A DNA stretch of 32,456 bases from assembly GCA_017459665.1 (NCBI GenBank), contig JAFUCN010000036.1, positions 1 through 32,456 on the forward strand, in the 5' to 3' direction. The notes beneath the pieces were generated by a model that had not been told where the DNA came from, did not search any database, and saw only the letters and a list, made by a program, of their open reading frames with translations. The position numbers and the translations under genes are program-made. The stretch is from Methanobrevibacter sp. (GTDB taxonomy: Archaea > Methanobacteriota > Methanobacteria > Methanobacteriales > Methanobacteriaceae). This document shows, in pieces, positions 2,608 to 28,142 of this stretch. Every line of letters begins with the position of its first letter. Position 1 is the first letter of the stretch.

Positions 2608-3543
2608 TTAACTAACGATACCTTCGCTAGTAATTTTAAATACGCATTCACCTTCAGGTAAATGAGGAGAATCCACTAAACGTGCAATTCTTTTTCCAGC
2701 CAAACCTTTTTTAAGCCAAATTCTATAAGTAGAAGCGTGACCTAAAACGTGTCCCCCAATAGCTTTGGTTGGACTTCCAAAGAAGGAATCCGGTTTAGCT
2801 TGTACCTGGTTGGTAATAAATACAGCTACATTGTATGTATTAGCAATTTGTTGAAGGGAGTGTAAATGTTGATTTAATTTTTGTTGTCTTACAGCTAAAG
2901 ACTCTCTTCCAACATATTCTGCTCTGAAATGAGCCATCAATGAATCAACAATGACTAATTTGATATTATTACCGCTTTGAATGAGTTCATTAATCTTATC
3001 TACCATTAAAATTTGGTGAGAAGAGTTGAATGCACGAGCAACATGAATTCTTTGTAAAACTTCTTGAACATCCAATTCAAATCCGTTAGCGATTTGTTCA
3101 ATTCTTTCCGGACGGAAAGTGTTTTCAGTATCGATAAATACACATTCACCATCAAGACCGCCAAGTTCTTCAGGTAATTGAACAGTAACAGCTAATTCAT
3201 GAGAAATTTGACTTTTACCAGATCCAAACTCACCGAATACTTCAGTGATAGATTGGGTTTCAATTCCACCACCAATTAAATCATTGAATTCCTGGCTACC
3301 TACAGTAATGTGACCAACATCTCTTCTTCTTTCAAGTACATCGTATGCAGTTTCAAAATCAATATTTTCAGATCTACGGGCAGCTTCGATAACTTTTTCA
3401 GCTACACCTTCACCAATTTCGGCTTTTACAGATAATTCTTTTGGAGTTGCAGTAGCTAATCTCATCATGTCTGCAAAACCTGCATCTATTAATTTTTCTG
3501 CGGTTTTTTCACCAACACCTGGTAAATCACTTAATTCAACCAT
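2608..3543 (-). CDS. radA: DNA repair and recombination protein RadA
   Basis: RadA is the archaeal RecA/Rad51-family recombinase, which forms ATP-dependent filaments on single-stranded DNA for homologous recombination. The 311-residue protein has an N-terminal helix-hairpin-helix domain ([19 protein letters not shown]), the FxxA subunit-joining motif at residues 63-66 (FETA), a Walker A GEFGSGKS at 104-111, a Walker B LVIVDSL near 200, and the DNA-binding loop region containing [10 protein letters not shown]. An in-frame ATG three codons upstream (3552) lies directly against the AAGGA element. The ATG at 3543 has normal spacing and gives the usual family N-terminus MVELSDLPG, so I chose it. 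It follows rpa after 21 bases and is probably cotranscribed with it, which suits proteins that act on the same DNA. Confidence 0.97.
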
Positions 3544-3564
3544 AACAACCATTCCTTAATTTAT

Positions 3565-6153
3565 TTAATAATATTTAGATATAATTCTTTTAGGGCTTAA
3601 CCTATTTTCTTCATTGTATTCGTCAAAACTTACATTAGCGATTATCTCAACTGTTATTCCTTCTAAATCTTGAAGTTTATCTTCAATTCCATAACCGTCA
3701 TCAATAAGGCTAATTACTTCTTCTTTTTTCATTCCAAGTAACTCTTCAGCTAAGTTATCAAAGAAGGTAACTTGAATTTCTCCAGTATCATCTTCTATTC
3801 TTGTAGGAATCATGAATAAATAACTTGGCTCATCAAATATGTGACCACAGTTATCACAAACATATTCATCAATTGTTTCCTCTACATTAGCTCTACAATT
3901 TGGACATTTTTTAAGAATAGTTCTTTCAGTGCCAACATCCTTAATTGTACCAGTTACACAGACATTAGTATCATCTTCTCCTAAAGCTTCAATTGGTTTT
4001 GAAACAAAAATCATTTCCATCAATTCTTCTTGAGAAGGTAATTTATTTATTTCGCTTTCACTTGGTTCAAGTACAGCAGTGCTTCTGGTTACAGTAGCTT
4101 CAATACGGTTATCCATGTCTAGACCGAAACGAGGATTTTGCAATTTGATTGCTTGACCGATTTCGAATTCTTTTTGAGCATCTTTATCCCATAAAACAAC
4201 TCTAAGGGAACCAGTATCGTCTGCAATTTCAATATTTCTAACATGACCTTCACTGCCATCATCTCTTTCGAAATCACGAACATCATTTAATTCAATGATT
4301 CTGCCTATAACAATGATGTCTTGGTCATCTTCATCGATGTCATTGATATTTTTGTAATCGTAGAGAGTTTTTTCCAATGTGGATAATTCAGGTATGAACA
4401 TTGCGGATGCCTGTTCTTCAGATAATTTGATTAATCTGGCTCCTCCACCAATGTTTAAATCAACACTATACATTCCAAGTCTGGTTCTTGCATTTTCAAT
4501 TTGGTATGCATCACCGACATTGTATTCCTCTTGAGCTCTTTCATTCCATAAAGATAATCTGACTTTTCCAGATTCATCAGCAAAAAGAATAGATCTGACA
4601 ATACCCACACTACCGTCATCCCTTTGGAATTCATTGGTATCGTCAACAGAAAGAATCCTACCAACAACGTCAAGTTCGATTCCATCATCATCAATTGCAT
4701 AGATTTCTCCAATAGGAGTTGGTCTTAATTCATTTCTTAATGATTCGAATTCATCCAATTCTTCAACTGATAAATTTTGTGGGTTTATTGTGATTTGAGT
4801 ATTGAAGTTAGTGTTCATTGAGTATTGGCTTTGGGTATATTCATCATAACGGACATCACCGCCAATAATTTTAACAATATCTCCTTTGTTTAATGGAAGA
4901 TCTGTGTCATCGCCCCAGACAGTGACTCTTATATCTCCTGTTGAGTCTCTGACATCAAAGTTTCTGAGTTTTCCTTCACTTTGGTCTGTTTTTCTTATAA
5001 ATGTTTTAATGTCCTGGAGCCTTGCAACAATACCTTTGATTGAAACATCTTTCTGTTCGCTTACATCAGCGATAGGGGTGAATTCCTGAGCAATTTCAGG
5101 AACGTCAAAGTCTCCTTTGATTATTCTTCCATCCCAATGGGTAAGTGAAATTTCACTTTCCCCATCTCTGTTTGTCCTTTCACGTGCTTGGGCTTGAAGT
5201 ATTTTAACTGTATCGCCGTCTTCGAGACCTAAATCTTTAATTAACTCAACATTTTTATTCCATAATGTATAGGTGATTTTTCCAGAAGCGTCTTGTAATT
5301 CAAGGGATGCGACTTTTCCTTCTTTTCCATTCTTTTCATAGCTTCTTATTGTTGGAATTCTAACAATTCTTGCGATAATGTTGACTTTGTTTTCAGGTTC
5401 AATATCAGCAATTCTTGTAATTTCTTCTTCGTAAACTGGGAATTTTGAAGGGTCTTCTTCTAAATGTACGACAGTTGATCTTGGCCTTAGGTTTGCTTCA
5501 AGACCGGAATATCCTTCTTTGATGTCTACATTTTTAATCTGAATAATGTCTCCTTCTTTGAAATTCTTAATAAGCTTAATGTTTTGAGTCCAGAATACTG
5601 ACCTTATCACACCAGTATTGTCTTTCAACTCAACATTACAAACTTCACCGCTTGCCCCTTTACGAGTTTTGAATGATCTCGGATTTGAAATTGAAACAAC
5701 CCTACCAGAAATTGTAACATCCCTGCTTCCTTTTTCAAGTTCACTGATTGTGTTAGTAGAATATTCTGGTTTTTCAGAAACTGTTTCAACTTCTTCATCT
5801 TTAAACTCACCTTTAACCATTTTGGCAAAATCAACATCAGCATAAAAAGAAATATCTTCATTTTCTTTTCTGAAATGTTCCATTCTTTTCAGGAAATCTT
5901 CTTCAGATACTTTGTCTTTTACTTCTTCATAGATACTTCTTATTTCATCACTCATGGTTGAAGTTGATTCCTCATTTGAAAGTTCCTGATTAACATCAAT
6001 GCCATGGTTTTTTAAGACTTCACGAGCGCAGTCAACGTCATCTATAAAGTCTATACCAAAGCTTTCACGAACTTCTTCCATTTCAGCGAGGAATGCTTCT
6101 TGTGAAATTTGATCTTGTATTTTTTCGTATAATTCTAAAATTTCTTCTTGCAT
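3565..6153 (-). CDS. rpa: Replication protein A (single-stranded DNA-binding, multi-OB-fold)
   Basis: This is a large (862-residue) archaeal RPA that coats single-stranded DNA in replication and repair. Five OB-fold repeats can be followed by their GRI/GxV strand and DxTGxIRxxxW motif, starting near residues 146, 256, 369, 491 and 614. A sixth, C-terminal OB-like region (about 733-860) contains a zinc finger, CPNC...CDNC, near 749-769, as in eukaryotic RPA70. The first 110 residues are two copies of a short helical module (LYEKIQDQISQEAFLAEME near 8 and IYEEVKDKVSEEDFLKRME near 74). The chain is acidic throughout. The ATG at 6153 has a GAGGGG Shine-Dalgarno and a TATA box upstream. It is probably the first gene of an rpa-radA operon. 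Confidence 0.93.
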   Translation of the reverse strand: MQEEILELYEKIQDQISQEAFLAEMEEVRESFGIDFIDDVDCAREVLKNHGIDVNQELSNEESTSTMSDEIRSIYEEVKDKVSEEDFLKRMEHFRKENEDISFYADVDFAKMVKGEFKDEEVETVSEKPEYSTNTISELEKGSRDVTISGRVVSISNPRSFKTRKGASGEVCNVELKDNTGVIRSVFWTQNIKLIKNFKEGDIIQIKNVDIKEGYSGLEANLRPRSTVVHLEEDPSKFPVYEEEITRIADIEPENKVNIIARIVRIPTIRSYEKNGKEGKVASLELQDASGKITYTLWNKNVELIKDLGLEDGDTVKILQAQARERTNRDGESEISLTHWDGRIIKGDFDVPEIAQEFTPIADVSEQKDVSIKGIVARLQDIKTFIRKTDQSEGKLRNFDVRDSTGDIRVTVWGDDTDLPLNKGDIVKIIGGDVRYDEYTQSQYSMNTNFNTQITINPQNLSVEELDEFESLRNELRPTPIGEIYAIDDDGIELDVVGRILSVDDTNEFQRDDGSVGIVRSILFADESGKVRLSLWNERAQEEYNVGDAYQIENARTRLGMYSVDLNIGGGARLIKLSEEQASAMFIPELSTLEKTLYDYKNINDIDEDDQDIIVIGRIIELNDVRDFERDDGSEGHVRNIEIADDTGSLRVVLWDKDAQKEFEIGQAIKLQNPRFGLDMDNRIEATVTRSTAVLEPSESEINKLPSQEELMEMIFVSKPIEALGEDDTNVCVTGTIKDVGTERTILKKCPNCRANVEETIDEYVCDNCGHIFDEPSYLFMIPTRIEDDTGEIQVTFFDNLAEELLGMKKEEVISLIDDGYGIEDKLQDLEGITVEIIANVSFDEYNEENRLSPKRIISKYY

Positions 6154-10556: not shown

Positions 10557-11636
10557 TTATTTTAAAAGATAATCAATAATTCTTTTAGATGCTTGACCGT
10601 CTATTGCATCAAATTGTGTAGAAACAAATTGTGATATTTTACTTTTGTCGAAGTTATTATTTCCTATTACATCTATTAGCTCTTCAGTTGTATAAACTAT
10701 CGGTCCGGGAACGGTTTTTTTAAAATCATAATAAAATCCCCTCTCACTGGATAAATAATTGTCCAAATCATATGTGAAAAATACTGTCGGCTTGTTTAAA
10801 GCACAGAATTCTATCATTATTGATGAGTAATCGGTTATCAGCAAGTCGCTGATTAACATCAACTCCTGTTCATTGGAATAGTCACTTACATCAACATACT
10901 CGCCTTTAGAAGAAATTGACTCGCTGTAAAATTTGTTTATCTTTGGATGAAGCCTTAAGGCCAATACATACTCGCCACCTAAGGATTCGTTGAATTTTCC
11001 CAAATCAAGGAAATTGAACACATCATTGTATTTTTCATCTTCTCTGAATGTCGGAGCATAAAGAATGATCTTTTTATCATCTGGAATATTATATTTTTTA
11101 AAGAATTCTGATTTTAACTTGTCCAGATTATGGTCTTCAAAGTAATAGTCCATTCTTGGAAGTCCCAAAGCCTTAATTTTATCCTTAGGCATCTGAAAAG
11201 CTTCGCTGTAATATTCTTTGATTTTTTCAGAAGTTGTGATTAAATAATCAGTGTTAGCGGAAATTTTGGAAAGAATTGGTCTGTTTTCAATTTCAACAGA
11301 TCCTCCAAACTTTTTGGAAGCGCCAGGAGCATGCCATAACTGAACTATGATATTTTCATCTTTGAACTTCATGAAAGCAAGTGGAAAAAAGTTGTCGTTT
11401 AAGAAAATGTATTTTGAAGAAGCTAAACTTTTAAAACTGCTAAAAGATAATTTATCCTTGTAAAAAAAGTGAAATTCAAAATTACCCCTTCTCTCGAATT
11501 CCTTCTTAATATAATCCAGATTGCCCTTAAAAGACTCTCTTGAATCTATTATAAATGAAATCCTGTTATTTTTGACAGGAGTAAATTTAAACAGTTTAAA
11601 TAAAATTCCATATATTTTATGCTTTAGATATGACAT
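10557..11636 (-). CDS. CDP-glycerol:glycerophosphate glycerophosphotransferase family protein (TagB/TarF-like)
   Basis: Members of this family transfer glycerol phosphate or ribitol phosphate from a CDP donor onto a lipid-linked acceptor, as in bacterial wall teichoic acid synthesis. The 359-residue protein shows family landmarks: an IVQLWHAPGASKKFGG segment with the key His, DYLITTSEKIKEYYSEAF, IILYAPTFREDEKY, LRLHPKI, and SDLLITDYSSIMIEFCALNKP. It is close to the size of TagB. An in-frame TTG at 11645 is a worse start than the ATG at 11636. It lies between the small membrane pair and three glycosyltransferases, so it probably builds or caps a phosphate-containing surface polymer. The CDP-activated donor gene is not in this window. 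Confidence 0.88.
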   Translation of the reverse strand: MSYLKHKIYGILFKLFKFTPVKNNRISFIIDSRESFKGNLDYIKKEFERRGNFEFHFFYKDKLSFSSFKSLASSKYIFLNDNFFPLAFMKFKDENIIVQLWHAPGASKKFGGSVEIENRPILSKISANTDYLITTSEKIKEYYSEAFQMPKDKIKALGLPRMDYYFEDHNLDKLKSEFFKKYNIPDDKKIILYAPTFREDEKYNDVFNFLDLGKFNESLGGEYVLALRLHPKINKFYSESISSKGEYVDVSDYSNEQELMLISDLLITDYSSIMIEFCALNKPTVFFTYDLDNYLSSERGFYYDFKKTVPGPIVYTTEELIDVIGNNNFDKSKISQFVSTQFDAIDGQASKRIIDYLLK

Positions 11637-11648
11637 ATAGACCAATAA

Positions 11649-12420: not shown

Positions 12421-13428
12421 CTACCTGTTTGAATACATTTTTTTATAGTATTCCTGATACTGGCCACTTTTGACCTGTTCTGTCCAGTCCTGATTATCCA
12501 AATACCAGTGGATTGTCTCTTTGATGCCCACTTCAAAGGTATATTTTGGAGACCATCCCAAATCATTCTGGATTTTTGTTGAATCAATTGCATAACGCCT
12601 GTCATGGCCTAACCTATCTGTTACGAATTCTATTAGTGATTCATCCTTATCAAGTTCATCCAATATTAGCTTGACGATTTCGATGTTCTGCTTTTCATTG
12701 TTTCCACCTATATTGTAGACTTCACCAAGAACACCTTCATGCATCACCAAATCGATGGCCTGACAGTGGTCATAGACATGCAGCCAGTCCCTGATGTTTT
12801 TACCATCACCGTAGACAGGCAGCTTCTTGTCTTCTAATGTATTTGAAATCATTAATGGAATTAATTTTTCAGGAAACTGATAAGGCCCATAGTTATTTGA
12901 ACAGCGTGTGATATTTATAGGCAATCCGAATGTCTCACCATAAGCTCTTGTAATCAAATCCCCACCGGCTTTTGAAGCTGAATACGGACTGTTAGGCTGT
13001 AGCGGTGTGGTTTCTGTGAAATAACCAGTTTTACCTAATGTTCCATAAACCTCATCGGTTGAAATCTGAATGTATTTTTCAACACCATGCTCTTTGGCGG
13101 CATTCAATAGAACCTGTGTGCCCAAGACATTTGATTTGATGAATATTTCAGGATCTGTTATGCTTCTGTCAACATGGCTTTCAGCTGCAAAGTTAATTAC
13201 ATAATCGCACTCTTTTACCAAATCATCGACAACGCTTTTATCTCTAATGTCACCTTTTACAAATGAATAATTATCCTTATCTTCAATATCCTTTAAATTT
13301 TCAAGGTTTCCGCAGTAAGTTAGCGCATCCAAGTTAATAATTTTGTATTCGGAATATTTGTTTACCATGTATCTTACGAAATTGCTTCCGATAAATCCTG
13401 CTCCGCCTGTAACTAAAATCTTTGTCAT
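12421..13428 (-). CDS. rmlB: dTDP-glucose 4,6-dehydratase
   Basis: RmlB converts dTDP-glucose to dTDP-4-keto-6-deoxyglucose, the second step to dTDP-L-rhamnose. It is a 335-residue extended short-chain dehydrogenase with an NAD-binding VTGGAGFIGSNF motif at the N-terminus, FAAESHVDRSI, the substrate-specific STDEVYG loop with Asp-Glu, the catalytic YSASKAGGDL, and RCSNNYGPYQFPEKLIP. An in-frame ATG at 13440 is four codons upstream, but AGTGAT just before the ATG at 13428 is the expected ribosome-binding site and MTKILVTGG is the usual N-terminus. The rmlC stop lies inside that site. It is the last gene of the rmlD-barnase-barstar-rmlA-rmlC-rmlB run. Very secure. Confidence 0.96.
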   Translation of the reverse strand: MTKILVTGGAGFIGSNFVRYMVNKYSEYKIINLDALTYCGNLENLKDIEDKDNYSFVKGDIRDKSVVDDLVKECDYVINFAAESHVDRSITDPEIFIKSNVLGTQVLLNAAKEHGVEKYIQISTDEVYGTLGKTGYFTETTPLQPNSPYSASKAGGDLITRAYGETFGLPINITRCSNNYGPYQFPEKLIPLMISNTLEDKKLPVYGDGKNIRDWLHVYDHCQAIDLVMHEGVLGEVYNIGGNNEKQNIEIVKLILDELDKDESLIEFVTDRLGHDRRYAIDSTKIQNDLGWSPKYTFEVGIKETIHWYLDNQDWTEQVKSGQYQEYYKKMYSNR

Positions 13429-13432
13429 GTAA

Positions 13433-13993
13433 TCACTCATATTTAATTTGGGATTCCTTCAATCCTGACCATTCCTTGTCCTTATCAGACAATATTATCT
13501 CATCAATTCCTTCCAGTGGCCAGTCAATACCAATATCCTCATCATCCCATTTTATTCCACTTTCATCTTCACCGTGATAAAATTCTGTACATTTATAAAC
13601 GAATTCAGCTTCATCAGACAATACTAAAAATCCATGAGCAAATTTAGGAGGAATATATAACTGTTTTTTATTTTCATCAGACAATATCTCACCATACCAT
13701 TTGCCGTAAGTCGGAGAGTCTACTCTTAAATCCACACCAACGTCAAATACTTCTCCCTTAATGACACGAACAAGTTTGCCCTGAGGATAGTTAATCTGTA
13801 AATGAAGGCCTCTCAGTACGCCTTTTGTTGACTTTGACTGATTATCCTGAACGAAAGTCAAGTCATGACCTGCCTCTTTAAATTCGTTTTCCTGGTATGT
13901 TTCCATGAAATATCCTCTGTTGTCCTCAAAAACAGTAGGTTCAACAACAAACATGCCTTCAATTCCAGTATCGATAAAATTAAACTTACCCAT
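13433..13993 (-). CDS. rmlC: dTDP-4-dehydrorhamnose 3,5-epimerase
   Basis: RmlC epimerises C3 and C5 of dTDP-4-keto-6-deoxyglucose, the third step to dTDP-L-rhamnose. The 186-residue cupin-fold protein has FEDNRGYFMETY, FVQDNQSKSTKGVLRGLH with the catalytic His, YPQGKLVRVIKGEVFDVGVD, and the IPPKFAHGFLVLSDEAEFVYK segment. An in-frame GTG nine bases upstream (14002) is part of the AGTGAT ribosome-binding site, so translation should start at the ATG at 13993. The rmlA stop codon TGA (13999-14001) is embedded in the same element. Sixth in length among the genes around it but of normal size for the family. Confidence 0.96.
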   Translation of the reverse strand: MGKFNFIDTGIEGMFVVEPTVFEDNRGYFMETYQENEFKEAGHDLTFVQDNQSKSTKGVLRGLHLQINYPQGKLVRVIKGEVFDVGVDLRVDSPTYGKWYGEILSDENKKQLYIPPKFAHGFLVLSDEAEFVYKCTEFYHGEDESGIKWDDEDIGIDWPLEGIDEIILSDKDKEWSGLKESQIKYE

Positions 13994-13998
13994 AATAA

Positions 13999-14862
13999 TC
14001 ACTTGACCAAATTAAATAAGTATTGTCCGTAATCAGTTTTTTTAAGCTCTTCAGCTGTTTTCAATAATTCCTCATCGTTGATGTATCCTTTAAGGTATGC
14101 AATCTCTTCAAGACATGCAATATATAATCCTTGCCTTTTTTGTACTGTTTCAATGAAGTTTGATGCTTCAAGAAGTCCCTCGTGAGTTCCTGTATCGAGC
14201 CATGCCATACCTCTTCCCAGAAGTTCCACTTTAAGCTTTCCACGTTTGAGGTATTCCTCGTTTACAGAGGTTATTTCAACTTCTCCCCTCTCAGAAGGTT
14301 CCACGTTTTTGGCTATGTCAATTACTTCATTATCGTAGAAATATAACCCTGGAACAATGTAATTTGATTTTGGATTTTCCGGTTTTTCTTCAACAGACAG
14401 TACATTCCATTCGTCGTCGAATTCAACTACACCGAACGCCTCTGGGTTTTTGGTGTAGTAACCGAATATTACTGCACCCTCTTTTAGACTGGTTGCCCTT
14501 TCCAAGATTTCTGTGAATCTGTGTCCATGGAATATATTGTCTCCAAGAATTAATGCTACGTTATCGTCACCTATAAAGTCCTCTCCGACAATGAATGCCT
14601 CTGCAAGTCCGTTCGGTTTTTCCTGAACGGCATATTCGAACTTGATTCCTAAACTTGACCCATCGCCCAAAAGATCTTTATACATTGGCAAGTCACGGGG
14701 AGTTGAAATAATCAATATTTCCTTAATTCCAGCAAGCATTAAAACAGAAATCGGATAATAAATCATTGGCTTATCATATAAAGGCAGTAACTGTTTAGAA
14801 ACTGCTTTTGTAATCGGATAAAGACGGGTTCCAGAACCGCCTGCAAGAACAATACCTTTCAT
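13999..14862 (-). CDS. rmlA: Glucose-1-phosphate thymidylyltransferase
   Basis: RmlA joins glucose-1-phosphate and dTTP to give dTDP-glucose, the entry step to dTDP-L-rhamnose. The 287-residue protein has the nucleotidyltransferase motif [11 protein letters not shown] with its activating Arg, [27 protein letters not shown] with the metal-binding Asp, and [13 protein letters not shown]. The length is typical of the short RmlA form. An in-frame GTG at 14871 is inside the AGTGAT ribosome-binding site; the ATG at 14862 gives the standard [13 protein letters not shown] start. It follows the barstar gene after a 48-base gap with no promoter-like box that I could find, so it is probably in the same operon. 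Confidence 0.97.
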
Positions 14863-14910
14863 AATAATCACTATTTAAACTATTAATCTTTTAATTAATT
14901 AAGATAACTG

Positions 14911-15141
14911 TCAGGGATACAATGTTAATTTTAAAAACTCGTTTTCTGAAGCTACATCCTTAAATGTGTCAATTATGTCTTTTTCCACCATTTCACAGTT
15001 TATTATTTCAATTTCCGCGTCAATTTCACTAAGACAATCATATAACGCATCCAGATTTTTTCCATAATACTCAGGGAAGTTTAAAGCTTCCATCAGATAG
15101 TCATGGCCTTCAGTTTTGATTAGTTTTCCGTCAAGCTGCAT
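14911..15141 (-). CDS. Barstar-family ribonuclease inhibitor
   Basis: Barstar is a small cytoplasmic protein that plugs the active site of barnase. The 76-residue product carries the family hallmark FPEYYGKNLDALYDCLSEI (residues 22-40). The two aspartates that contact barnase in the Bacillus complex (D35 and D39 there) are present as D31 and D35; Trp38 is replaced by Tyr. The C-terminal strand (FLKLTLYP) and an acidic stretch before it fit the fold. Translation starts at the ATG at 15141, behind an excellent GAGGAGGT ribosome-binding site; the open frame runs further up but that part overlaps the ribonuclease gene and is not barstar-like. One base separates it from the ribonuclease stop, so the pair is translationally coupled. 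Confidence 0.92.
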   Translation of the reverse strand: MQLDGKLIKTEGHDYLMEALNFPEYYGKNLDALYDCLSEIDAEIEIINCEMVEKDIIDTFKDVASENEFLKLTLYP

Positions 15142-15142
15142 C

Positions 15143-15592
15143 CTAAACCTCCTCAAATGTGTTGTAGTGGTCGCTTGTGTAGTATACCTTAAAGTCACCA
15201 GTGTTATAGACTATCCTTTCTGCTCCACGTGCAGTTCCATTTGCGTTAATGTCACATTCTATGTATTTTGAATTGCTGTCTGGAAGCACATGCTGTCTGT
15301 TTGTAAATGTATCACCACCGATACTTTTTCCAGGGGCATAATCCTTAAGCGGACCACCGTGCCAACCCAATGCACGTGCCTCACTTTTGGTTATGTAATT
15401 GCTTGGAAGCTTGTGAAATTCCTTAATGTAAGCTGCAACCTCATCAACTGTGCAGTACTGGCCATCTTCTACTACATCAACATCACTTGAATCGTCACCA
15501 AAATTGAAAAAGTCAAAAAATCCTGCGCTAACGGCAGAAATACTGAATAAAGCGATAATTAATGCAGCAATAAAAACTAATTTCTTATTCAT
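15143..15592 (-). CDS. Secreted barnase-type ribonuclease
   Basis: This 149-residue protein is a barnase/N1-T1-family endoribonuclease. Residues 1-23 are a signal peptide (MNKK, hydrophobic core, VSA before the likely cut), followed by an acidic linker. Residues 46-149 align with Bacillus barnase: HKLPSNYITKSEARALGW, APGKSIGGDTFTNR and SDHYNTF are almost the same. All the catalytic and phosphate-binding residues are present: K69, D94, R99, E112 (general base), R122, R126 and H142 (general acid), matching barnase K27, D54, R59, E73, R83, R87 and H102. Two cysteines (47 and 113) could form a disulfide outside the cell. The ATG overlaps the rmlD stop as ATGA. The product should be exported and cleave RNA; its target is unknown. 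Confidence 0.94.
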   Translation of the reverse strand: MNKKLVFIAALIIALFSISAVSAGFFDFFNFGDDSSDVDVVEDGQYCTVDEVAAYIKEFHKLPSNYITKSEARALGWHGGPLKDYAPGKSIGGDTFTNRQHVLPDSNSKYIECDINANGTARGAERIVYNTGDFKVYYTSDHYNTFEEV

Positions 15593-16428
15593 TTTATCAA
15601 CTCAATATATTCCTTTATTGCCTCTTTATAGCTTCTAAGTGGTTTGAATCCTTTTTCTATCCAATTCTTATTGTTTAATACTGAGTAGCTTGGTCTTGGA
15701 GCAGGCCTTGCAAATTCAGATGCAGTTACAGGTATGACCTTAACGTCCAATTCTGCAACTTCAAATATGTATCTTGAAAATTCACACCATGAACAGCTTC
15801 CTGAATTGGTTAAATGATAAATTCCATAGTAATCCGTTTCGATTAGTTTGGCTATACCTTCAGCAAGATCCGGAGTGTATGTCGGTGTTCCCACCTCATC
15901 ATAAACAACAGTTATCTCTGAATGGTTTTCGGCAAGCTCAAGCATTGTTTTCGGGAAATTCTTGCCGTTGATGCCATACAGCCATGCGGTTCTGACAATG
16001 AAGAATTTATCCAATATTTCCTGAATGGCCTTTTCCCCTTCAAGTTTGCTTTTGCCGTAAACGCTTATAGGACCAATCTGGCCATCTTCATCAATAGGAT
16101 CTCTTGCAGTTCCGTCAAAGACATAATCAGTACTTATGTGAACCAAGGGACAATCAACTTGCCTACATGCCAAAGCCAAATTCTTTACACCTTCACCATT
16201 AACGGCATATGCAACATCCTGATTTTCCTCACAGCCGTCCACATCAGTATATGCGGCTGAATTGATGACAATATCAGGTTTTGCATCACAAATAAAATCG
16301 ATTGTGTGCTGTTTATCTGTAATATCCAATGTTTTTGAGGTTGTAAGGATTAGTTCGTGCCTGTCCTTTAGGACTTCCTGCAGGTCATGGCCCAACATTC
16401 CATTAGAACCTGTAATCAAAATCTTCAT
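15589..16428 (-). CDS. rmlD: dTDP-4-dehydrorhamnose reductase
   Basis: RmlD carries out the last step to dTDP-L-rhamnose, reducing dTDP-4-keto-rhamnose with NAD(P)H. The 279-residue short-chain dehydrogenase has ILITGSNGMLGHDL at the N-terminus, NSAAYTDVDGCEEN, HISTDYVFDGTA, the catalytic YGKSKLEGE and FIVRTAWLYG. An in-frame GTG at 16437 is part of the ribosome-binding site, so the ATG at 16428 is chosen. It is the first gene of the rml operon and is divergent from wecC. Its stop codon overlaps the start of the ribonuclease gene by four bases, which ties expression of the ribonuclease to rhamnose synthesis. Confidence 0.96.
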   Translation of the reverse strand: MKILITGSNGMLGHDLQEVLKDRHELILTTSKTLDITDKQHTIDFICDAKPDIVINSAAYTDVDGCEENQDVAYAVNGEGVKNLALACRQVDCPLVHISTDYVFDGTARDPIDEDGQIGPISVYGKSKLEGEKAIQEILDKFFIVRTAWLYGINGKNFPKTMLELAENHSEITVVYDEVGTPTYTPDLAEGIAKLIETDYYGIYHLTNSGSCSWCEFSRYIFEVAELDVKVIPVTASEFARPAPRPSYSVLNNKNWIEKGFKPLRSYKEAIKEYIELIK

Positions 16429-16460
16429 AATAACCACTTAAAACTTTTAATATTAGTTTA

Positions 16461-25091: not shown

Positions 25092-28000
25092 TTAACCTTG
25101 AGTGAAGGCATTTCTTTTAAGAATTTTTTTGACAAAATTAAATAGGTCAGGGTCATCTTCATCATAGAAGCTTTTGGAAAAACCGGATTTCTTGAATGCA
25201 TTAAGCATTTTTCCAACATCAATCGTATTGCCGTCAATTCTGATGATTCTGTCTTTTTGGTTGAAAATGCCGTTCTTTTCCCAAATGTTATACTCTTCAG
25301 CTCCCAATTCCTTTTTCATTCTCTTATTTAACCAGTTTTTTGGAAGTCCCATTTCCTTTGCATGGACTAATGCCATTACCCTTGGAACAATCACACCAAC
25401 TTCGAATATGAATGAAAATTCCTTGAAGGCCTCTTCGCCATTCTTGCCCCTGAAAAACCAGTCATATATCTCATCCAAACTGACGCCTAAAATCTTTGAG
25501 AGCTTAGTTCCGGTTGCATGGTGCTTTTCGATTTCATCAATGGCTATCTTAAACCTTCTCTTTAATATCATTTCATCAATTCTATCCCTGTTTTTGCTTA
25601 ATTCCTCATTAGTAAGACAAGAATTTTTCAGCGCAATTTTCAGGGATTTTTTTGCCAAAACCGCATCGACATACAAATCGATTTTCAAGTCAAGATAATC
25701 GCTGCTGAATTTAGAGAATTTTTCGTTTCCGGATTTGCCCAGCTCATAATAATATTCAAGCTCCTTAACGGTTATTCTTGAGCTTTTCAATGCCTTGTTG
25801 TATGATTTTGTCTTGAAATCCTGCAGGAACTTGTCAAGAAGATTTGGAATCACCTTGTCTTCATACAAATCACTTACCTCCCTGCAGTCCATGAATCCCC
25901 TTTTTCCAAGATCGATGAACTCTTCAATTTGTGTTATTGGAATATCATATTTGTTTGACACTTCCCTGATTGTCTTTTCATGTCTGAAACCTTCAACAAC
26001 AAGGTCCTTTTCCATTATCTTGTTTTCATAGCTGAATCTTGAAAACAAATCTATCTGAGTGTTTTTAAGCCACTTGTTTATTATGTTGTTTGAAAGGCCA
26101 ACGCCTCTTGCAGAATCCGGCTTGTTTTTTCCGTTTTTTCTTTTTTCGAGATACTTATCCATAAGCAGTTCGGTTGTTTCAAGATAAAAGCTGGATGGCT
26201 TATTTGTGGCGATGAATTCATCCTGATCTTTGATATACCATGAATTGAAATCCTTTTGGGAAATTTCGCACTTCTGAATTGAATTGTAAAAGTCATTAGT
26301 CTTTAAAAGCCTTACGAACAGACGTTTTCTGTTCAAGGCGAATTCCTCATCAAATCTCAAATGGAAATCCGTCTTTTCCCTTTTGCTGGTATTATATATT
26401 TCAAGAAATTCCCTTGGAGTAAGCTGGGCTGAGTTGATTGCTTCTCTAACGCTCAAATCATCCTTCAGGGCGTTGATTATTTTGCCCCTTTTTACAAGGT
26501 TTGAAGTGATATGGGCATTTTTAGCGATGAAATTTTGTGTTATCTTCAAATCCTCATGATTAAGCCAAGATTTAATCATGTTCTGGTTTATGTTCATGCG
26601 TTTACATATTTCCTGCTTTTTCAGGCCCTTTTTTCTATATCCAAGATACTTGTCCATCAGAATTTTAGTCACTTCAAGGTAAAATTGGGAATATTCAGCT
26701 TCGCCTGACCTATACCATTTGTTGAATTCTGTTTTTGTAATTTTGCTGATTCTGATTGCCCTGTTTAATGCTGTGGTCTTCAAGTGCTTTATGAAAGTTT
26801 TCTGCCGTTTTTCAACATATTCCCTGTCAAACTCCTTATGGAAATCATCACCGTCATTTTCTGATCTTATATAAAGCCTGTTGAATTCCCTTTCACTGAT
26901 TTTAAGGGTTGAAAGTGTTTCCTTTAAAGTTTTGTTGTTTTTGATTTCCTTTAAAATCAAATCCTTTTTTATTTCATTTGTCCTTTTTAGAAAGTCATCT
27001 CCTGCAAAGCTGTTTTTCCAGAAAGCGTAGATGTCATCTGAAATGTTGAGCCTGTCCTTGATGTTTTCATCATCCATATTTCTCTTTTTGCATCTGAAAA
27101 AGTCCTTGATTAGGATTTTATTAAACAGTATAAACGCATCGTTTAAATCACCGTTGATAAACTCTGTTTTTCTGTGATTGAACCAGTTTTTGATATTTAA
27201 CTCATCCATCTCAGAGGCCTTCATGCTTTTTTCAATGTTTTCCATTTGAAGAAGCTTTTCTTCAAAATTCCTCTCAAGCTTAATATTGACCAGCCTGAAA
27301 AATTCAACGAATGGCTTTTGATTTATGCTCCCCTTCCAATATTCCATTGTGTTTTTTACCTCATATGCGGTGATTTCATCATTGTAAAACTTTGTAATCA
27401 AAAGCCCGATTTCAATATACTCATCGATTTCGCCAAGATAAGTGTTGAATTTATCATCATTGACGTGATAGTTTTCACCCTTTTTAATCAGGATGTTCTG
27501 CCTTGAAAAATCAGCCAAAAATGAAACCGCCTCGATTTCACTCAACCCATAGTCAATCAAATCGCTTTTTGTAAACTCATCCCTGTCGAATGTGTTTTTG
27601 ATGCTTACCAAAAGATTCAAATTGTCGATTTTAAGATTGCAGGAATCGCACATGTTTGAAAGGTGGTTTGTGTTTTTGCTTCCGCATATTATGCAGTCCT
27701 CAAAATGAATGTGCCTTTTTTGGGGAACCTTATACTCTGGAATGATTACGTGCCTTTTATTATCACAGTAATCTGTGAAATATTTCTTTGAAATGTAGAA
27801 TAGCCTTTTGTGCAAATCAAAGGCAAGCTTAATCTCATCATCAGGGTTTTGATAGCTGTTGTGTATTTTGTTTCTCAAATTATAGGCTTCCTGGAGCTTG
27901 TTCTTGTAGATATAGGAAATTTCGCCTGACCTGTAGAGATTGTCGATTTTTTTATAAAATGATATGAGATTGCTGTCAAGCTTGTTTTTAGATAATCTGT

Positions 28001-28142
28001 AGATATCCTTGACCAGAGTTTCTAAAAACTGTGTAGCATCTGCTGTTACTGCCCTTGGAGAGTTTATTACATCCTCTTCCAGTTTTACGCCGATTTCATA
28101 CAATTCTTTGTTAAAACTTTTTAAAAAATCAAAATTTGACAT
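25092..28142 (-). CDS. 1016-residue protein: DUF4145-like domain, zinc finger and tandem HTH-like repeats
   Basis: I do not recognise this whole protein. Residues 1-125 form a helical domain resembling DUF4145, ending in an arginine-rich helix (EAYNLRNKIHN at 85). A four-cysteine zinc finger follows: C150, C153, C165 and C168. Residues 240-960 are a chain of about twelve units of 35-45 residues, each a hydrophobic helix, a short turn and a helix ending in an aromatic pattern such as KTEFNKWYRSG or MIKSWLNHE. This is the shape of homeodomain/sigma-4-like helix-turn-helix units. Three consecutive units form a super-repeat of about 158 residues (b-c-d at 396, 450, 494; e-f-g at 553, 608, 659). 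No enzyme motif is seen. The ATG has AAGGTGAT upstream. DNA binding is an inference. Confidence 0.85.
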   Translation of the reverse strand: MSNFDFLKSFNKELYEIGVKLEEDVINSPRAVTADATQFLETLVKDIYRLSKNKLDSNLISFYKKIDNLYRSGEISYIYKNKLQEAYNLRNKIHNSYQNPDDEIKLAFDLHKRLFYISKKYFTDYCDNKRHVIIPEYKVPQKRHIHFEDCIICGSKNTNHLSNMCDSCNLKIDNLNLLVSIKNTFDRDEFTKSDLIDYGLSEIEAVSFLADFSRQNILIKKGENYHVNDDKFNTYLGEIDEYIEIGLLITKFYNDEITAYEVKNTMEYWKGSINQKPFVEFFRLVNIKLERNFEEKLLQMENIEKSMKASEMDELNIKNWFNHRKTEFINGDLNDAFILFNKILIKDFFRCKKRNMDDENIKDRLNISDDIYAFWKNSFAGDDFLKRTNEIKKDLILKEIKNNKTLKETLSTLKISEREFNRLYIRSENDGDDFHKEFDREYVEKRQKTFIKHLKTTALNRAIRISKITKTEFNKWYRSGEAEYSQFYLEVTKILMDKYLGYRKKGLKKQEICKRMNINQNMIKSWLNHEDLKITQNFIAKNAHITSNLVKRGKIINALKDDLSVREAINSAQLTPREFLEIYNTSKREKTDFHLRFDEEFALNRKRLFVRLLKTNDFYNSIQKCEISQKDFNSWYIKDQDEFIATNKPSSFYLETTELLMDKYLEKRKNGKNKPDSARGVGLSNNIINKWLKNTQIDLFSRFSYENKIMEKDLVVEGFRHEKTIREVSNKYDIPITQIEEFIDLGKRGFMDCREVSDLYEDKVIPNLLDKFLQDFKTKSYNKALKSSRITVKELEYYYELGKSGNEKFSKFSSDYLDLKIDLYVDAVLAKKSLKIALKNSCLTNEELSKNRDRIDEMILKRRFKIAIDEIEKHHATGTKLSKILGVSLDEIYDWFFRGKNGEEAFKEFSFIFEVGVIVPRVMALVHAKEMGLPKNWLNKRMKKELGAEEYNIWEKNGIFNQKDRIIRIDGNTIDVGKMLNAFKKSGFSKSFYDEDDPDLFNFVKKILKRNAFTQG

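What the first reader, a model, noticed from the sequence alone, without database searches (positions are those of the whole stretch)
14911..15592. Complete secreted barnase with its barstar in an archaeal dTDP-rhamnose operon
The 149-residue product has a signal peptide and all seven catalytic or phosphate-binding residues of barnase; the next gene is a barstar with the conserved YYGKNLDALYDC helix. The pair is inserted between rmlD and rmlA with a 4-base overlap (ATGA) to rmlD and one base between ribonuclease and inhibitor. Barnase/barstar is a bacterial system. A secreted RNase made with cell-surface genes suggests competition with neighbouring microbes, scavenging of RNA, or control of mixed biofilms. 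Barstar would prevent self-damage before export, and the tie to rhamnose genes hints at link to envelope state.
Basis: partly seen in the sequence, partly recalled or inferred. Interest (0 to 1): 0.88.

Follow-up and report, generated by a model that had tools for sequence, protein, structure and literature searches.

The report
Gut methanogen's exported barnase with barstar
A rumen methane-producing archaeon carries a complete gene pair for an exported RNA-cutting enzyme (barnase) and its built-in inhibitor (barstar); the pair is a long-conserved loan from gut bacteria shared by most of its relatives, so it is a real, widespread but basically known kind of system whose job in the gut is untested.

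Summary
Window 15143-15592 (-) encodes a 149-aa barnase (Pfam PF00545, 8e-18; PDB barnase 7e-28) with every catalytic residue; 14911-15141 (-) encodes a 76-aa barstar. Both sit between rmlD and rmlA with the reported 4-base overlap and 1-base gap. The pair is not a curiosity of one genome: PF00545 is in 89 of 139 Methanobacteriaceae genomes (56 of 67 in this genus), in 5 of 17 genera, and nowhere else in the phylum sample; a barstar adjoins it in nearly all. The archaeal pairs form one clade (100/99) whose relatives are mostly lipoprotein barnase-barstar pairs of gut Clostridia. The barnase domain is under strong purifying selection (dN/dS about 0.07), unlike polymorphic toxins. The rhamnose link does not generalise: 55 of 56 congeneric loci lie next to rmlD, 0 of 32 elsewhere. 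Best reading: an exported guanyl-type RNase acting on extracellular RNA, with a cytoplasmic barstar guard, acquired once from gut bacteria and kept. Whether it feeds the cell, modifies matrix RNA or harms competitors is open. Barnase-barstar in methanoarchaea was already noted in 2012, so this is a new member of a known kind. Structure jobs did not settle the complex interface.

The parts
15143..15592 (-). Barnase-type guanyl-preferring ribonuclease, 149 aa, N-terminal Sec-type signal followed by a PF00545 domain (about aa 48-149)
   Evidence: ORF; PF00545 8e-18; PDB barnase 7e-28; catalytic residues; predicted fold TM 0.90 to barnase
14911..15141 (-). Barstar, 76 aa, no signal peptide, intact YYGKNLDALYDC helix with D31 and D35 (barstar D35 and D39)
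   Evidence: PF01337 7e-12; PDB barstar 1.6e-5; motif kept in nearly all relatives
15524..15592 (-). Signal peptide region of the barnase (MNKKLVFIAALIIALFSISAVSA), by inspection
   Evidence: sequence; conserved VSAGFFDF N-terminus in close relatives
15589..15592 (-). ATGA overlap between rmlD stop and barnase start (likely translational coupling)
   Evidence: sequence; same 4-base overlap in 41 of 52 measurable loci of the genus
15589..16437 (-). rmlD, dTDP-4-dehydrorhamnose reductase, upstream neighbour
   Evidence: PF04321 3e-99; adjacent in 55 of 56 loci of the genus
13999..14871 (-). rmlA, glucose-1-phosphate thymidylyltransferase, downstream neighbour
   Evidence: PF00483 3e-76
12421..14002 (-). 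rmlC and rmlB, rest of the dTDP-rhamnose operon
   Evidence: PF00908 1e-73, PF16363 8e-94

Best explanation
This is a canonical barnase-barstar pair, acquired once by gut Methanobacteriaceae from a gut-bacterial (Clostridia-like) source and then kept as a stable part of the genome. The barnase is made with an export signal, leaves the cytoplasm (free or tethered at the surface) and cuts extracellular RNA at guanines. The barstar has no signal, stays in the cytoplasm and blocks any enzyme that folds before export. In this genus the pair lies inside the rhamnose operon and its translation is probably coupled to rmlD. The most likely use is breakdown of RNA outside the cell (RNA from lysed neighbours, or matrix RNA); a direct antibacterial role is possible but unproven. 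Shown: both genes, their conservation, pairing, context and purifying selection. Inferred: export, RNase activity, inhibition, direction of transfer and ecological role.
For: Family and PDB matches. K27, W35, N58, E73, R83 and R87 invariant, H102 and Y103 in 86 of 87 archaeal homologues. The barnase half of the model superposes on barnase at TM 0.90, rmsd 1.3. PF00545 in 89 of 139 family genomes and PF01337 in 87, nearly always adjacent; no barstar above the cut-off in a genome without barnase. All archaeal pairs form one clade, 100/99. Among 68 gut-bacterial relatives 53 have an adjacent barstar, 44 a lipobox-like N-terminus, and all 68 share the ECD motif with the archaea where Bacillus barnase has EAD. 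dN/dS: barnase domain 0.067, rmlA 0.048, rmlD 0.104, barstar 0.24: a conserved enzyme with a faster-evolving partner. The export signal differs by genus (Sec-type here, lipobox in 13 of 16 of the M. ruminantium genus) but a hydrophobic N-terminal segment is retained.
Against: No activity, transcript or secretome data were found. No signal-peptide predictor was available. The complex was not confirmed: fused-chain models gave pTM 0.74 and 0.58. Direction of transfer rests on distribution, because the tree is unrooted and the bacterial sample was chosen by similarity. One genome (G106) has barnase without a detected barstar. The barnase tree puts Methanosphaera next to this genus, unlike the aEF-2 tree, though vertical descent is not rejected (AU p 0.136).
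Confidence: 0.62

Rival explanations
1. Antibacterial effector with immunity protein: the exported RNase enters or is delivered into competing bacteria, and barstar protects the producer and its kin.
For: Barnase domains and Imm-barstar are recurrent parts of polymorphic toxin systems (PMC3482391); some bacterial relatives sit at the C-terminus of proteins of about 1030-1080 aa (L152, L184). Archaeal secreted enzymes that kill bacteria have been shown (PMC12352652).
Against: No delivery domain: the protein is a signal plus one domain. No polymorphism: the barnase domain has median identity 85% within the genus and dN/dS 0.067. One barnase per genome and no orphan immunity genes. From general knowledge, bare barnase is not known to enter bacteria.
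Confidence: 0.27
2. Nutrient scavenging only: extracellular RNA is cut to nucleotides that the methanogen or its partners take up. (A narrower form of the best explanation.)
For: Stable, enzyme-like conservation; surface or lipoprotein anchoring in several genera and in gut Clostridia.
Against: No nucleotidase, phosphatase or nucleoside transporter recognised in the window. Not tested genome-wide.
Confidence: 0.3
3. Envelope-linked function: the RNase works with the rhamnose glycopolymer machinery, or is regulated by envelope state.
For: rmlD adjacency in 55 of 56 loci of the genus and a 4-base overlap in 41 of 52.
Against: 0 of 32 loci in the other genera have rml genes nearby. The other flank of rmlD is about as stable, so the region is simply syntenic. 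Several congeners have rmlD-rmlA with no pair.
Confidence: 0.08
4. Intracellular toxin-antitoxin module (abortive infection or growth control), with the N-terminus acting as something other than an export signal.
For: Toxin and inhibitor genes are adjacent; a broken toxin with an intact inhibitor in G039 and a deletion scar in G004 resemble module decay.
Against: Hydrophobic signal or lipobox N-terminus retained across genera; toxin-first order; barstar is a single 76-aa domain without a DNA-binding part.
Confidence: 0.07

Closest known systems
Barnase-barstar of Bacillus amyloliquefaciens and relatives (PF00545/PF01337)
   Same: Fold (TM 0.90), catalytic residues, export signal on the RNase and none on the inhibitor, conserved inhibitor helix
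   Different: Archaeal host; about 50% identity over the domain; inhibitor shorter (76 aa against 89-90); Cys after the catalytic Glu; next to rml genes with a short overlap to rmlD
Barnase-barstar pairs of gut Clostridia (Lachnospiraceae, Oscillospiraceae, Butyrivibrio) found here (L141-L207)
   Same: Nearest bacterial relatives, mostly 50-56% identity; adjacent barstar in most; ECD motif; export-type N-terminus
   Different: Mostly lipobox N-termini with longer linkers; their gene neighbourhoods beyond barstar were not studied
Simple barnase-barstar systems of methanoarchaea (PMC3482391) and the M. stadtmanae secreted RNase listed as lateral transfer (PMC3445992)
   Same: Same kind of pair in the same archaeal family; M. 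stadtmanae's pair is L124 here
   Different: Those papers give a mention only; extent across gut Methanobacteriaceae, context, selection and losses are added here
Polymorphic toxin systems with Tox-Barnase and Imm-Barstar
   Same: Same catalytic and immunity domains, toxin-immunity gene order
   Different: No delivery module, no variable C-terminus, single immunity gene in this genus, strong purifying selection

Membership tests
Barnase family (PF00545, N1/T1-type microbial RNase) | Sequence match above the curated cut-off | tested here: met
   65.2 bits against 24
Barnase family (PF00545, N1/T1-type microbial RNase) | Catalytic and phosphate-binding residues K27, R59, E73, R83, R87, H102, Y103 | tested here: met
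   all present in the window protein
Barnase family (PF00545, N1/T1-type microbial RNase) | Barnase fold | tested here: met
   TM 0.90, rmsd 1.3 to barnase chains
Barnase family (PF00545, N1/T1-type microbial RNase) | Secretion | tested here: inconclusive
   N-terminal signal by inspection only; no predictor or secretome
Barnase family (PF00545, N1/T1-type microbial RNase) | Guanyl-preferring RNase activity | not testable with these tools
   needs purified protein
Barstar family (PF01337) | Sequence match above the curated cut-off | tested here: met
   45.6 bits against 23.4
Barstar family (PF01337) | Barnase-contact helix with the two Asp residues (barstar D35 and D39) | tested here: met
   YYGKNLDALYDC, D31 and D35 here
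Barstar family (PF01337) | Binds and covers the barnase active site | tested here: inconclusive
   fused-chain models pTM 0.74 and 0.58, no coordinates to inspect
Polymorphic toxin system | Secretion or delivery module fused to a variable C-terminal toxin | tested here: not met
   signal plus single domain; 149 aa
Polymorphic toxin system | Polymorphism or diversifying selection, immunity gene arrays | tested here: not met
   dN/dS 0.067; single immunity gene in this genus
Type II toxin-antitoxin module | Cytoplasmic toxin; antitoxin usually with a DNA-binding domain | tested here: not met
   toxin has an export-type N-terminus; barstar is a single domain of 76 aa

The most novel reading that the evidence does not exclude
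Most gut Methanobacteriaceae carry one orthologous exported barnase, taken once from gut bacteria, as a fixed inter-domain interaction enzyme that acts on the RNA or cells of their bacterial neighbours; its absence from M. smithii would then mark a different way of living among bacteria.
Probability: 0.25. Interest if true: 0.75.

Novelty: new member of a known kind. Interest (0 to 1): 0.5.

Why it matters
Direct antagonism of archaea against bacteria, or feeding on their remains, is hardly documented. Here a well-understood enzyme-inhibitor pair is present, with intact active sites, in most rumen Methanobrevibacter and Methanosphaera species sampled, including cultured strains with complete genomes (M. 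millerae SM9, M. ruminantium M1, M. stadtmanae), and is absent from M. smithii PS. That gives a natural presence/absence series and a simple biochemical assay to ask what an exported RNase does for a methane producer in the gut. It is also a clear example of a bacterial gene pair that became a stable archaeal trait.

Tried and rejected
Mobile-element or phage origin: no match in phage records and only four records of the plasmid collection, three of them over 2.6 Mb, below 50% identity; viral contigs gave only partial 34-42% matches. MAG contamination: rejected, because the same rmlD-barnase-barstar order recurs across the genus, including the complete M. millerae SM9 genome. Rhamnose or envelope link: rejected as general. 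Transfer from Methanosphaera into this genus, suggested by tree conflict: not established (AU p 0.136). A first fused alignment (A3) put barstar rows onto barnase and was discarded. A first aEF-2 tree used wrong-strand fragments and was discarded and rebuilt. No RNA family in the window; the sigma-70 scan was at chance level and is not suited to archaea. The mBio 2019 review on archaeal toxins is not held in the library.

Full report
What is there. The finding's coordinates hold two minus-strand genes: barnase 15143-15592 (149 aa) and barstar 14911-15141 (76 aa). Upstream is rmlD with a 4-base ATGA overlap; downstream are rmlA, rmlC and rmlB, then a CDP-glycerol glycerophosphotransferase, three glycosyltransferases and a bacterial-type sugar transferase, that is, a cell-surface polymer cluster. 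Pfam, PDB and catalytic-residue tests all identify barnase and barstar. AlphaFold2 of the two read as one chain (barnase stop plus one base read as Gly, only to put both halves in one model) gave a barnase half at pLDDT about 90 that matches barnase at TM 0.90, rmsd 1.3. The barstar half is folded at pLDDT mostly 76-89 with a barstar-like order of elements. Their relative placement is not settled: pTM 0.74 for the window pair and 0.58 for a relative with a longer linker, and no coordinates were returned.

How widespread. PF00545 is in 89 of 139 genomes of the family and 56 of 67 of the window's genus, in 5 of 17 genera, and in none of the other families in the phylum and domain samples. Barstar is in 87, next to the barnase; of the two barnase genomes without it, G008 is cut by a contig end and G106 seems to lack one. 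The first three have the pair; M. smithii PS does not. Named records of close relatives are Methanobrevibacter, several of them from deer, goat and other ruminant gut samples.

Context. In the genus, rmlD is directly upstream in 55 of 56 loci; rmlA lies within 700 bases downstream of the barnase in 38 and further away in 12. The 4-base overlap is in 41 of 52 measurable cases. In the M. ruminantium genus the pair lies beside a glycosyltransferase-like gene and a threonyl-tRNA synthetase gene, in Methanosphaera beside other genes; no rml genes are near in any of 32 loci outside the genus. Of 11 congeners without barnase, two gave no rmlD match; five have rmlD and rmlA next to each other with no pair (G021, G029, G032, G137, G140), and so has G054; M. 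smithii PS (G033) and G011 have no rmlA next to rmlD; and G004 keeps a remnant that matches the barstar 3' end and the sequence after it at up to 92.5% over 80 bases, a deletion scar. So the pair has been lost at least once; whether the clean rmlD-rmlA sites are ancestral or losses is open.

Origin and evolution. The nearest bacterial relatives are from gut Clostridia, mostly at 50-56% identity, with two Kiritimatiellota and one unnamed gut bacterium at 46-57%. Of 68 bacterial loci, 53 have an adjacent barstar, 44 a lipobox-like N-terminus and all 68 the ECD motif, which is EAD in Bacillus barnase. The archaeal sequences form one clade in both the barnase tree (94) and the barnase plus barstar tree (100/99). 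The bacterial sample was chosen by similarity to the archaeal query and the tree is unrooted, so direction (bacteria to archaea) rests on breadth of distribution. Within the archaea, Methanosphaera groups with this genus rather than outside it as in the aEF-2 tree, but an AU test does not reject the species order (p 0.136). Selection within the genus: median dN/dS 0.067 for the barnase domain, 0.24 barstar, 0.104 rmlD, 0.048 rmlA, by a simple counting method on the minority of pairs not saturated at synonymous sites.

Reading. The anatomy says exported RNase plus cytosolic guard. Conservation says a maintained enzyme, not a polymorphic toxin. The genus-specific context says that the rhamnose genes are a place, not a partner, as far as can be shown. 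I therefore put most weight on cutting RNA outside the cell; whether the gain is nutritional, structural or competitive is open. Prior literature already recorded this kind of system in methanoarchaea; its extent and stability in gut Methanobacteriaceae, the bacterial kinship of both genes, and the loss scar are what this analysis adds. The literature search covered only an open-licence library, so an earlier report of the same extent cannot be excluded.

Noticed in passing
L124:5332-5571 (M. stadtmanae), L121:5422-5664, L118:6476-6721, also L115, L120, L123: A second, degenerate barstar-like ORF follows the barstar in several Methanosphaera genomes (28% identity to the first in M. stadtmanae, 3e-9); the YYGxNLDALYDC helix is not kept and Pfam does not recognise it.
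   Followed up: partly
L096:3088-3546 (G106): The only full barnase with no barstar detected nearby has Glu at the position of barnase R59, a residue known (general knowledge) to contact barstar; a single case.
   Followed up: partly
L068 (G039), same contig as L140: Barnase reading frame broken while the barstar is intact.
   Followed up: no
L222, between rmlD and rmlA (G004): About 80 bases match the barstar 3' end and downstream region of relatives, a deletion scar of the pair.
   Followed up: yes
L152 and L184 (gut Clostridiales): Barnase domain at the C-terminus of proteins of about 1030-1080 aa that share an N-terminal stretch and are followed by barstar: looks like a delivered or polymorphic toxin.
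   Followed up: no
window 25092-28142 (-): 1016-aa ORF with no Pfam match.
   Followed up: no
window 3565-6153 (-): 862-aa protein with multiple OB folds (RPA-like) next to a Rad51-type recombinase at 2608-3552.
   Followed up: no
window 10557-11645 (-): CDP-glycerol:polyglycerophosphate glycerophosphotransferase homologue beside the rml genes, suggesting a teichoic-acid-like polymer in a methanogen.
   Followed up: no
L208-L219 (viral contigs): Partial barnase-like matches (34-42% over about 45-54 residues) in IMG/VR contigs.
   Followed up: no
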